A stretch of 64,000 nucleotides of DNA from Bacteriovoracia bacterium (lineage in GTDB: Bacteria; Bdellovibrionota; Bacteriovoracia; Bacteriovoracales; Bacteriovoracaceae), in the NCBI GenBank assembly GCA_030431635.1, contig JAUIIL010000001.1, positions 372,001 to 436,000 of the forward strand. Reading direction: 5' to 3'. The position numbers were made by a program, and so were the translations under genes. Positions 42,136-49,079 of the stretch are shown here, piece after piece. The notes under the pieces were generated by a model. The model was not told the origin of the DNA. It made no database searches and worked only from the letters and a program-made list of their open reading frames with translations. Every line of letters starts with the position of its first letter. Positions within the stretch are counted from its first letter, which is position 1.

Positions 42136-42645
42136 ATGAGTGAAAAAGCGACTTCTAAGGCCACAATTGGCGCCGGATGTTTTTGGGGAGTTGAATATAT
42201 ATTTGAAAGAATTGCTGGCGTTTTGAATGCGGTTTCTGGCTATAGTGGAGGAGAGGTTGAAAACCCAACCTATCAAGAAGTATGCACGGGAACGACAGGA
42301 CATGCGGAAGTTGTGCAGCTTGAGTTTGATCCTGGTGTGATTAGCTTTAAAGAAATACTTGATTATTATTTTCGCTCTCACGATCCTACTCAACTCAATG
42401 GACAAGGACCAGATTTAGGTCATCAATACCGCTCAGTTGTTTTTTATCATAATGAGGGACAAAAAAAAGAAGTGGAAGACTTCATTCAGAAGCTCAATGA
42501 TGGAGAGTATTTTGACGCTCCGGTTGTGACTGAAGTGAAGGAATTGAAAAAATTCTATCCAGCGGAAGAATACCATCAAGATTACTACTCAAAGAATAAT
42601 CAAAGACCTTATTGTCATGTTTTGCGTGAGAGTTTTAAGCTTTAG
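42136..42645 (+). CDS. msrA: Peptide-methionine (S)-S-oxide reductase MsrA
   Basis: The 169-residue protein has the MsrA signature GAGCFWGVEYIF with catalytic Cys, GYSGG, GTTGHAEVV, and HDPTQLNGQGPDLGHQYRS. It repairs methionine-S-sulfoxide in proteins. msrB lies separately at 47475. AAGGAGAG lies before the ATG. The length fits the single-domain enzyme. Confidence 0.95.
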   Translation: MSEKATSKATIGAGCFWGVEYIFERIAGVLNAVSGYSGGEVENPTYQEVCTGTTGHAEVVQLEFDPGVISFKEILDYYFRSHDPTQLNGQGPDLGHQYRSVVFYHNEGQKKEVEDFIQKLNDGEYFDAPVVTEVKELKKFYPAEEYHQDYYSKNNQRPYCHVLRESFKL

Positions 42646-44839: not shown

Positions 44840-46240
44840 GTGAAGTTTTCATGTCTTTTACTTTTAGTTAGTTTATTTTCTTTTGCTCAAAATAGAGCAG
44901 ACTTCTTTAGTTATGAAAACTCCAAGAAAAAGCACTCCTACCATGGTCTCCATCCTCAAATTCAACGCAATGTTTTTAAAGATTTTCTTAAGCAATACTG
45001 CGAACTTTATTACCATCCGGTGAATTTTAAAACTGGTTATGAGAAATGCCTTCTGACTTACGAAGAAGATGAAGATCTTTTTGAAGCTTTCTTGAAGGCC
45101 TTTGAAAGAAAAGTGATCCGAGCGGAGCATTTAAAAAATGGCGAGAAGCACTTTATTGGAAAGAATGAGTGCTATGTCTACCGTGGTGGAGTGCTAGATG
45201 GTGTGCTTGAAAAAGATCAGTATCTGCGTTTATGTGAATATAAAAGTATGATTAATGGTAAAGAGAGCAGTTTTAAAAACTATCTCGTTCTAAGCACACA
45301 GAATGAGAGTTCTAACCTTATTCCAATCACTCAAGGCAGAGATAAGGTTTTCTTCACATCAACGATGCCTGAGTTTTATTTATGGCGAGATGATAAGTGG
45401 AGATCTTGGTTTACTTCCATTTATTCAGCGATTAGAACTAAGGAAAGTATTGATGGTGTTAGGTTTGATTTTCATCGAAAGACTTATAATAGAAGGCGAA
45501 TAACTCTTAAAGAGCTTAAAATTGGCGACTCTATCCATATTTATTCTCGTAGTCGAAAAGATGAGGAAGTTTTTGAATTTGATTACGTCAAAATTAATGG
45601 GAAGAAATTTTATTTCACTCCAAATGGCTACCTTTTTTCATCAGACTTCATTGAGGCCACTCAAGTTAAAGGTGAATATAGATTTGCAATGGAAAATATT
45701 AAAGAAAGAGGGGTGATTAAAACTCTTGAGCCCGTTGATACAGATGAAGCAGTAAGAATGTTTGGTTATCTTCCTTCAGTTGTGGCCGCTGCTCCAGAAG
45801 GCCCTGTGGCCAGTTTGGAAAATGAGGTCGCTGTAAGGTGGTTTTTTCAATACCAAAACGAAGAGTATCCAGATGGAGAGCTTCTTTTAGAATATAAAGA
45901 TGGTAAGCCATATAAGTTTCTTATTCTTTACAACAACTTTCACTACAACACTCTTAAAATGGATAAGAACGGCTGTGATTTGGAAGGCGCTAAGCTTCCT
46001 TTCTTCGCTTATGACCCGAGTACTTTTATGATTCCTATAGGCAGTGAAGGCTCAAGTAGTTTCTTTGTTAAACTTGTTTCGGAAAATAAAGCTGTTATTG
46101 GGTATATTTCAGAAAAAGAAGAGTTAAAATTTAATAAAGGCAGCTACCTTATAAGAAAAAAAGGTGAAGAAGAGTTTGGAGATCTACCACTTGAGCTTTC
46201 AGCAGAAGAAAAACAAGAGCGAAGATGCTCAGAAAACTAA
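44840..46240 (+). CDS. Large secreted protein, unknown
   Basis: The 466-residue protein has a signal peptide (MKFSCLLLLVSLFSFAQ) and starts with GTG. It is strand-rich with many aromatic and charged residues and has no recognised motif; repeats of about 100 residues are not evident. It ends 92 bases inside the convergent Nramp-like gene. Function unknown. Confidence 0.6.
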   Translation: MKFSCLLLLVSLFSFAQNRADFFSYENSKKKHSYHGLHPQIQRNVFKDFLKQYCELYYHPVNFKTGYEKCLLTYEEDEDLFEAFLKAFERKVIRAEHLKNGEKHFIGKNECYVYRGGVLDGVLEKDQYLRLCEYKSMINGKESSFKNYLVLSTQNESSNLIPITQGRDKVFFTSTMPEFYLWRDDKWRSWFTSIYSAIRTKESIDGVRFDFHRKTYNRRRITLKELKIGDSIHIYSRSRKDEEVFEFDYVKINGKKFYFTPNGYLFSSDFIEATQVKGEYRFAMENIKERGVIKTLEPVDTDEAVRMFGYLPSVVAAAPEGPVASLENEVAVRWFFQYQNEEYPDGELLLEYKDGKPYKFLILYNNFHYNTLKMDKNGCDLEGAKLPFFAYDPSTFMIPIGSEGSSSFFVKLVSENKAVIGYISEKEELKFNKGSYLIRKKGEEEFGDLPLELSAEEKQERRCSEN

Positions 46241-47474: not shown

Positions 47475-47912
47475 ATGGCAATGATGAATGAAGATCTAAA
47501 AAAGAAATTAACTCCCCTGCAGTATGCTGTGACTCAAGAAGATGCGACTGAGCGTGCTTTTGATAATGAATTTTGGGATCATAAAGAAGTTGGTCTTTAT
47601 GTTGATATCGTCTCTGGCGAGCCTTTATTTACTTCACTTGATAAGTTTGATTCAGGTTGTGGCTGGCCATCTTTTACAAGACCTATTCATGAGAGAGCGG
47701 TGACTGAGCATGATGATCGTAAATTTTCAATGAGAAGAGTGGAAGTCAGAAGCTCAAAAGCTGACTCTCATTTAGGCCACGTGTTTCCAGATGGCCCTCG
47801 TGATAAGGGCGGGCTAAGATATTGTATTAATTCAGCTTCTTTGCGCTTTATTCCTTTTTCAGAGCTAGAGAGCGAGGGTTATTCTGAGTATAAAAGTTTA
47901 TTTCTCAAGTAA
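47475..47912 (+). CDS. msrB: Peptide-methionine (R)-S-oxide reductase MsrB
   Basis: The 145-residue protein shows the MsrB core: [34 protein letters not shown], and catalytic Cys in [11 protein letters not shown]. The structural zinc CxxC pairs are absent ([11 protein letters not shown] has no cysteine), as in the zinc-free type. It partners functionally with msrA (42136) but is in a separate transcript. No strong ribosome site is seen at ATG 47475. Confidence 0.92.
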
Positions 47913-47943: not shown

Positions 47944-48513
47944 ATGTTTAGTTTCTACCGTTTTTTTATTCTATTAGTTTTAAGTTTCTCCATCGAAGCA
48001 AAAACTGATTTCTTTGAGCCCAAGACTGATGAAAAGGCAGTTTTAATGAAGGGTTCTTGTCAAGTCTCAACTGGAGCAAGTGCTCCATGTATAGGGGCCA
48101 TTATAAGAAATCCTAAAACAGAGACTTTTTTCATTGGGCATTTTAACGCCAGGTTTGTGAGAGGAAAATTTTTATCAATGGTTGTTGAAGCGCTTGAAAA
48201 ACTAGGGGCCTCTCATGAGTTAGAAGTTTTTATCACGGGCTCATCTGGCCCAGAATTTGGTGGTACTCTTCTCATGGATAATAAGGAATATATTGAAAAC
48301 CTTTTAATTGAAAAAGGATTTAAGGAAGAGAAAGCTCACTTATTATGGCTTCCTGAAAAATATGTGAGTTGGATAGAGCTTAATAATGAGACAGGAGCGG
48401 CGACACTCTTCTATAACGGAACGAAAGAGTTTTTTAAAGGTGAAAAAATGAAAGAAATGGATTTAAGAGGAAGAGAGGGAAAATTTCCTAAGGGTGAGAT
48501 TTGTCTATTTTAA
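47944..48513 (+). CDS. Secreted CheD-like protein 1 (putative glutamine deamidase fold)
   Basis: The 189-residue protein has a signal peptide (MFSFYRFFILLVLSFSIEA). The sequence TGASAPCIGAIIRNP...FFIGHF aligns with the chemoreceptor deamidase CheD (LGSCVAVCLYD...MAHF): Thr43, Cys49 and His66 have the same spacing (6 and 17 residues) as the Thr21/Cys27/His44 triad of Thermotoga CheD. The rest also follows CheD: helix LVV..LEKLGA, FITGSSG for the GGA loop, IENLLIEKGF, and a final ELNNETGAATLFY. CheD is normally cytoplasmic; a signal peptide is unusual. It is paired with a paralogue. No database check was made. Confidence 0.65.
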   Translation: MFSFYRFFILLVLSFSIEAKTDFFEPKTDEKAVLMKGSCQVSTGASAPCIGAIIRNPKTETFFIGHFNARFVRGKFLSMVVEALEKLGASHELEVFITGSSGPEFGGTLLMDNKEYIENLLIEKGFKEEKAHLLWLPEKYVSWIELNNETGAATLFYNGTKEFFKGEKMKEMDLRGREGKFPKGEICLF

Positions 48514-49079
48514 AAATTTTTACCCTATTATTTATTATTTCTTTTGATTCTCAAGCTCAGTATGAAGAAGATTTTTCAGCAGAAGCTGGTGCGGAAGCGA
48601 AGCTGATGGGAGGAAATTGTGTTGTCAGTTCAGGAGCTTCAGGGCCTTGTATTGGAATAATTATTAGAGAGCCGAAAAAAAAACAATTCTATATTGGTCA
48701 CTTTTTTGCTGAATCAAATAGAAAGTCTTTCAAGTTAATGGTCAAGAAAGCGATTAGAGATTTAGGACCAGCTTCAACCTTGGAAGTCTTTGTGACAGGT
48801 TCTTCAGGGACCCCTGGTCTGTCTGACAGGCCACTTATAAAAGATAGATTTTTTGTAGAAAAACTGTTGGAAGAAAATGGCTTTTTAGAGAAGAAGACAA
48901 AGATAGCGTGGCTTCCAAAAGATCACACTGGATGGATTATTCTTGATAACAATACAGGCAGTGCCATACTTTATTATAACTATTTCAATGCTGTTGATGA
49001 AGATCCTGATGATCTTAAAGAAATCAATTTAAGACGAATGAAAGGGAAGTATCCTAAAGGGATGCCTTGTTCGTTTTAG
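48501..49079 (+). CDS. Secreted CheD-like protein 2 (paralogue)
   Basis: This 192-residue protein starts with TTG at 48501, with AAGGGTGAG just upstream, overlapping the first gene by 13 bases. It has a signal peptide (ILKIFTLLFIISFDSQAQ) and the same CheD-like core: SSGASGPCIGIIIREP...FYIGHF, giving Ser44, Cys50 and His67 at the CheD spacing (Ser instead of Thr). It then shows FVTGSSG, VEKLLEENGF and ILDNNTGSAILYY. The pair is one transcript and probably acts in the envelope or outside the cell. Confidence 0.65.
   Translation: MSILKIFTLLFIISFDSQAQYEEDFSAEAGAEAKLMGGNCVVSSGASGPCIGIIIREPKKKQFYIGHFFAESNRKSFKLMVKKAIRDLGPASTLEVFVTGSSGTPGLSDRPLIKDRFFVEKLLEENGFLEKKTKIAWLPKDHTGWIILDNNTGSAILYYNYFNAVDEDPDDLKEINLRRMKGKYPKGMPCSF

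What the first reader, a model, noticed from the sequence alone, without database searches (positions are those of the whole stretch)
47944..49079. Tandem secreted CheD-like proteins: possible exported glutamine deamidases
Seen: both have signal peptides and the CheD active-site spacing (Thr/Ser-x5-Cys-x16-His), with further CheD-like segments to the C-terminus. Known: CheD deamidates chemoreceptor glutamines in the cytoplasm, and toxins CNF1 and BLF1 share the fold. Inferred: these may deamidate or de-amidate envelope or prey/host proteins, a role not described for this family to my knowledge.
Basis: partly seen in the sequence, partly recalled or inferred. Interest (0 to 1): 0.85.

Follow-up and report, generated by a model that had tools for sequence, protein, structure and literature searches.

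The report
Exported CheD-like deamidase gene pair
Two neighbouring genes in a relative of predatory Halobacteriovorax bacteria encode proteins that are very probably exported and have the fold and active-site residues of CheD, an enzyme otherwise known inside cells that strips amide groups from chemotaxis receptors; the pair belongs to a wider, undescribed set of exported CheD-like proteins whose targets are unknown.

Summary
W1 (47944-48513) and W2 (48501-49079) are 45% identical paralogues, apparently translationally coupled, each with a Sec-type signal-peptide pattern and [T/S]-x5-C-x16-H, exactly the triad spacing of CheD (T21/C27/H44) and human NTAN1 (S69/C75/H92). No Pfam or NCBIfam model names them. 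Iterated profile searches of 369 genomes of the phylum found about 18 divergent relatives, nearly all with signal peptides and the Cys/His pair. A nine-member profile built without CheD picks only T. maritima CheD out of all PDB sequences (E 6e-5). Profile-profile comparison with CheD gives P 1.8e-7 to 7.5e-10, far above 199 shuffled controls each. An AlphaFold model of W1 (pLDDT 76) matches CheD first (Z 13.7, 2.5 A, 139 residues), then NTAN1, YfiH/PgeF, BLF1 and CNF1. The genome has chemotaxis genes but no true CheD, and W1/W2 lack CheD's other signature motifs, so they are exported members of the superfamily, not CheD orthologues. Amide hydrolysis by the Cys is the likeliest chemistry but is inferred; substrate and location (own envelope, medium or prey) are unknown. 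A second exported subfamily (PEVxQREY) in Halobacteriovorax/Bacteriovorax links CheD to NTAN1 by sequence.

The parts
47944..48513 (+). W1: exported CheD-like protein, 189 aa
   Evidence: ORF; CheD fold in AF2 model; profile homology to CheD
47944..48000 (+). W1 putative Sec signal peptide (residues 1-19)
   Evidence: sequence pattern: Arg in n-region, hydrophobic core (max 12-residue KD 2.32), I-E-A cleavage; low model confidence in this stretch
48070..48072 (+). W1 T43, third triad residue (equivalent of CheD T21, NTAN1 S69)
   Evidence: alignment; triad positions from PMC7022378
48088..48090 (+). W1 C49, putative nucleophile (CheD C27, NTAN1 C75)
   Evidence: aligned with the CheD catalytic Cys; Cys in all 41 aligned rows
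48139..48141 (+). W1 H66, putative catalytic His (CheD H44, NTAN1 H92)
   Evidence: aligned with the CheD catalytic His; His in all 41 aligned rows
48501..49079 (+). W2: exported CheD-like protein, 192 aa, TTG start overlapping W1 by 13 nt
   Evidence: ORF; 45% identical to W1; same triad S44/C50/H67
48501..48557 (+). W2 putative Sec signal peptide (residues 1-19)
   Evidence: sequence pattern, S-Q-A cleavage; hydrophobic core KD 2.47
48630..48632 (+). W2 S44, third triad residue
   Evidence: alignment with W1
48648..48650 (+). W2 C50, putative nucleophile
   Evidence: alignment with W1 and CheD
48699..48701 (+). W2 H67, putative catalytic His
   Evidence: alignment with W1 and CheD
47475..47912 (+). 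msrB (SelR, methionine-R-sulfoxide reductase), 31 bp upstream of W1; possible operon partner
   Evidence: Pfam PF01641, E 4e-49; promoter scan between the genes inconclusive

Best explanation
W1 and W2 are Sec-exported cysteine amidohydrolases with the CheD fold (CNF1/YfiH-like superfamily, CheD/NTAN1 branch). After signal-peptide removal, C49/C50 attacks a carboxamide, H66/H67 activates the thiol, T43/S44 orients the His; the acyl-enzyme is hydrolysed, releasing ammonia and turning Gln (or Asn) of an exported protein into Glu (or Asp). Homology, fold and triad are shown by computation; export is inferred from the N-termini; amidase activity is inferred from the superfamily; substrate and location (own periplasm, medium or prey) are unknown.
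For: Same triad spacing as CheD and NTAN1. Profile A3, built without CheD, against all PDB sequences: T. maritima CheD 2f9z_C E 6.3e-5, next hit 0.26. hhalign with 20 phylum CheDs: A3 score 64.4 (P 7.5e-10), A6 51.1 (P 1.8e-7), W1+W2 alone 23.6; best of 199 column shuffles 18.7, 18.5 and 21.1. AF2 model of W1: pLDDT 76.3, pTM 0.75; Foldseek best 2f9z_C E 1.2e-7; VIA Z 13.7, rmsd 2.5, 139 residues, then NTAN1 10.0, YfiH/PgeF 7-9, BLF1 7.5, CNF1 7.4. Cys and His kept in all 41 aligned family and CheD rows. Exported relatives found by domain similarity nearly all start with a hydrophobic signal-like segment. NTAN1 C75A and H92A abolish activity, S69A lowers it about five-fold (PMC7022378).
Against: No activity data. 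The third triad residue is Leu/Ala in the two nearest relatives, L003 (which also has an in-frame stop) and L007. CheD motifs other than the triad are missing. The good AF2 model used distant exported relatives in its alignment; with W1+W2 alone pLDDT was only 53 and Foldseek matches were weak, though NTAN1 and YfiH were among the top. The five-member profile A6 alone finds no CheD in PDB sequences. No SignalP run. In B. subtilis CheD has a binding role apart from catalysis (PMC3513319), so the fold does not prove catalysis.
Confidence: 0.62

Rival explanations
1. Exported CheD-fold cysteine hydrolase acting on something other than protein Gln/Asn, such as a cell-wall amide or a misincorporated residue, as YfiH/PgeF of the same superfamily does on UDP-MurNAc-Ser.
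For: YfiH/PgeF structures, including a complex with UDP-MurNAc-L-Ser, are matched by the model (Z 7-9); export places the enzyme next to peptidoglycan.
Against: CheD and NTAN1, both protein deamidases, are the clearly closer matches (Z 13.7 and 10.0) and share the C-x16-H spacing.
Confidence: 0.18
2. Non-catalytic exported binding proteins that kept the CheD fold.
For: CheD's binding to receptors and CheC matters apart from its enzymatic activity in B. subtilis (PMC3513319, title and abstract); third triad residue lost in L003 and L007.
Against: Cys and His are retained in every member aligned, most under 25% identical to W1, and both paralogues here keep the full triad.
Confidence: 0.12
3. 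True cytoplasmic CheD orthologues whose hydrophobic N-terminus is not a signal peptide.
For: CheD fold and triad; the genome has MCP and CheA/CheW-type genes but no other CheD.
Against: No match to the Pfam CheD model; lack HxMLP, GGA and IGExN motifs; split from CheD on the tree by a supported branch (95/97, apart from one long-branch row); not in a che cluster (che genes lie on contig C2, the window on C1); relatives also carry signal-like N-termini.
Confidence: 0.04
4. Chance motif in unrelated proteins.
For: Motif alone appears in 0.3-0.5% of shuffles.
Against: Profile, profile-profile and fold results.
Confidence: 0.02

Closest known systems
CheD chemoreceptor glutamine deamidase (PF03975; T. 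maritima 2F9Z)
   Same: Fold (Z 13.7 over 139 residues), triad T-x5-C-x16-H, order of strands and helices, alignment over the whole domain
   Different: Signal peptide; no HxMLP, GGA or IGExN motif; no match to the Pfam model; not with che genes; 13-20% identity in the alignments
NTAN1, eukaryotic N-terminal Asn amidohydrolase (PF14736; 6A0E)
   Same: Same triad spacing S69/C75/H92 and core fold (Z about 10)
   Different: W1/W2 are short (189-192 aa against about 305 modelled residues in NTAN1), so lack its C-terminal appendage, and lack the QRE and TTC residues near the active site; NTAN1 acts inside eukaryotic cells
YfiH/PgeF and the deamidase toxins BLF1 and CNF1
   Different: More distant by model comparison; the toxins act inside eukaryotic cells, YfiH/PgeF acts on a cytoplasmic wall precursor
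Exported PEVxQREY subfamily of Halobacteriovorax/Bacteriovorax (this work, no name found)
   Same: Signal peptide, same triad, profile match P 1.3e-8
   Different: Has QRE and TC residues as in NTAN1 and a conserved RHxDSxGGGD tail; W1/W2 have GPC or APC and no such tail

Membership tests
CNF1/YfiH-like cysteine hydrolase superfamily | alpha-beta-beta sandwich fold | tested here: met
   AF2 model; the 23 best-scoring VIA rows are all CheD, NTAN1, YfiH/YlmD/PgeF, BLF1 or CNF
CNF1/YfiH-like cysteine hydrolase superfamily | catalytic Cys and His | tested here: met
   C49/H66 and C50/H67 align with CheD C27/H44; adjacency in 3D inferred from the fold match, coordinates not inspected
CheD (PF03975) | score above the Pfam gathering cut-off | tested here: not met
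   no PF03975 match for W1 or W2; none in the whole genome at E <= 1
CheD (PF03975) | [T/S]-x5-C-x16-H triad | tested here: met
CheD (PF03975) | other conserved CheD motifs (HxMLP, GGA, IGExN) | tested here: not met
   alignments: W1 reads HFNA, TGSS and no IGExN
CheD (PF03975) | Gln deamidase activity on chemoreceptors, CheC binding | not testable with these tools
   needs biochemistry
NTAN1 (PF14736) | score above the Pfam gathering cut-off | tested here: not met
   W1/W2 no match; exported relative L076 does match, E 7.6e-8
Exported proteins (Sec) | N-terminal signal peptide | tested here: inconclusive
   pattern and hydropathy fit, but 23 of 63 window ORFs pass the same crude threshold and no dedicated predictor was run

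The most novel reading that the evidence does not exclude
A previously unrecognised, diverse group of exported CheD/NTAN1-like deamidases in Bdellovibrionota-type predators that modifies envelope or prey proteins outside the cytoplasm, with one subfamily that may be a bacterial, exported N-terminal Asn amidohydrolase.
Probability: 0.35. Interest if true: 0.78.

Novelty: new variant of a known kind. Interest (0 to 1): 0.62.

Why it matters
CheD is known as a cytoplasmic chemotaxis enzyme and its fold relatives as intracellular enzymes or injected toxins. Exported versions would mean protein deamidation, with its change of charge, is used in the periplasm or outside the cell, possibly in predation. 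The exported relatives also tie CheD to eukaryotic NTAN1 by sequence (L067 scores on both Pfam families, over the CheD cut-off; L076 is over the NTAN1 cut-off), whereas the NTAN1 structure paper reported no sequence similarity to known proteins (PMC7022378).

Tried and rejected
Pfam and NCBIfam scans of W1/W2 gave only sub-threshold noise (Rep_N, DsrD, glycogen synthase). Single-sequence search of PDB: nothing. W1 in genome contigs, plasmids and phages: no relative. A3 in viral contigs: alignment not conserved enough to search. Weak A1 and A2 hits such as UvrD-like L006/L015, the clostripain-like L008 ORF and aldehyde dehydrogenase L022 were read and rejected as chance. The first AF2 model (W1+W2 only) had pLDDT 53 and was not relied on. 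A conserved gene neighbourhood was sought and not seen: msrB precedes W1 here; L007 lies between a polysaccharide-deacetylase-like gene and a guaB-like gene; QREY-type genes have varied neighbours.

Full report
OBSERVATION. W1 (47944-48513) and W2 (48501-49079) exist as described, are 45% identical and are the only members found in their genome by W1 tblastn and by profiles A2 and A3. W2 starts with TTG inside the last codons of W1, behind AAGGGTGAG, so coupling is likely. W1 follows msrB by 31 bp. Both have a signal-peptide-like N-terminus and the T/S-x5-C-x16-H spacing. The bare motif is expected in 0.3-0.5% of shuffled copies.

HOMOLOGY. Direct family searches find nothing. Profiles were grown stepwise in the phylum (369 genomes): A1 (W1+W2) found L003 (E 4e-10) and L007 (2e-4); A2 added L014 (1e-11) and, more weakly (E 0.0016-0.07), L016, L019, L020 and L028. 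I read each ORF: all carry Cys+17=His; seven of nine carry Ser/Thr at -6. Weak hits without these features were discarded, so the motif is partly a selection criterion for the weakest four, while L003, L007 and L014 stand on score alone. A3 (nine rows) then found a well-conserved exported subfamily, PEVxQREY...TC...AHxD, at E down to 1e-14, and also genuine CheD genes at E about 1e-4 to 0.1.

INDEPENDENT TESTS. A3 against every PDB sequence hits T. maritima CheD (6.3e-5) and nothing else below 0.26, with the catalytic Cys and His aligned. hhalign of A6 (W1, W2, L003, L007, L014) with 20 CheDs scores 51.1; column-shuffled CheD alignments reach at most 18.5 in 199 trials; A3 64.4 against 18.7; even W1+W2 alone 23.6 against 21.1. 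The QREY subfamily profile hits CheD (2.6e-5) and, weakly, NTAN1 (0.05) in PDB; single members exceed the Pfam cut-off for NTAN1 (L076) or CheD (L067). All PF14736 matches in 250 related genomes fall on this exported subfamily or L076.

STRUCTURE. With eight rows AlphaFold2 gives W1 pLDDT 76.3, pTM 0.75. Foldseek: CheD first, E 1.2e-7. VIA: CheD Z 13.7, 2.5 A, 139 residues; NTAN1 about 10; then YfiH/YlmD/PgeF, BLF1, CNF1/CNFy; unrelated rows below 6. Caveat: six of the eight rows are distant exported relatives; the earlier two-row model was poor (pLDDT 53) but already ranked NTAN1 first and YfiH high.

CLASSIFICATION. PMC7022378 gives the triads CheD C27/H44/T21 and NTAN1 C75/H92/S69: the same -6/+17 spacing as here. 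W1/W2 miss CheD's other motifs, and the tree separates CheD from the exported sequences by a supported branch (95/97) except for long-branch L016. The genome has an MCP and CheW/CheA-type genes but no PF03975 CheD. So: members of the fold superfamily on the CheD/NTAN1 branch, not CheD orthologues.

ORGANISM. The named QREY loci (Halobacteriovorax marinus isolate, Bacteriovorax sp. DB6_IX and others) have the same proteins as loci of genomes labelled same family as the window (L073/L087, L070/L090), so the window lies in the family of Halobacteriovorax/Bacteriovorax. Whether this strain is a predator was not tested.

MECHANISM. Inferred: a periplasmic or extracellular Cys-His hydrolase, most likely of protein side-chain amides. 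Extra Cys pairs shared by W1 and W2 (W1 C39 and C187) could form a disulfide in an oxidising compartment. Ser/Thr loss in L003 and L007 is tolerable in principle: NTAN1 S69A keeps about a fifth of its activity and CNF1 uses a backbone carbonyl (PMC7022378). Substrate unknown.

LITERATURE. Searches for secreted or periplasmic CheD, Bdellovibrio deamidase and CheD with NTAN1 found no description of exported CheD-like proteins; the library holds open-access papers only.

Noticed in passing
L065-L074, L077, L028, L087-L092: An exported, conserved protein subfamily in Halobacteriovorax/Bacteriovorax (PEVxQREY ... QTxGxxTC ... AHxD ... RHxDSxGGGD) resembles eukaryotic N-terminal Asn amidohydrolase NTAN1 as well as CheD; some members pass Pfam cut-offs for one or the other.
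   Followed up: partly
L003:1378-2238: The nearest relative outside the window genome has an in-frame TAA after an A-run between the Cys and His; pseudogene or sequencing error.
   Followed up: no
L047, L048, L054, L055, L082, L083, L085: CheD domains in long ORFs (about 310-540 aa), several (L082, L083, L085) continuing into a response-regulator receiver-like region, which suggests CheD-CheB-type fusions in this phylum.
   Followed up: no
window 42136-42645 and 47475-47912: msrA (PF01625) and msrB (PF01641), both methionine sulfoxide reductases, lie within 6 kb, msrB directly before W1.
   Followed up: partly
window 44840-46240: 466-aa ORF with signal-peptide-like N-terminus and no Pfam match.
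   Followed up: no
L019:826-1962: Exported relative in which the CheD-like domain follows a long N-terminal region with an EF-hand-like DLDHDRRISEVE stretch.
   Followed up: no
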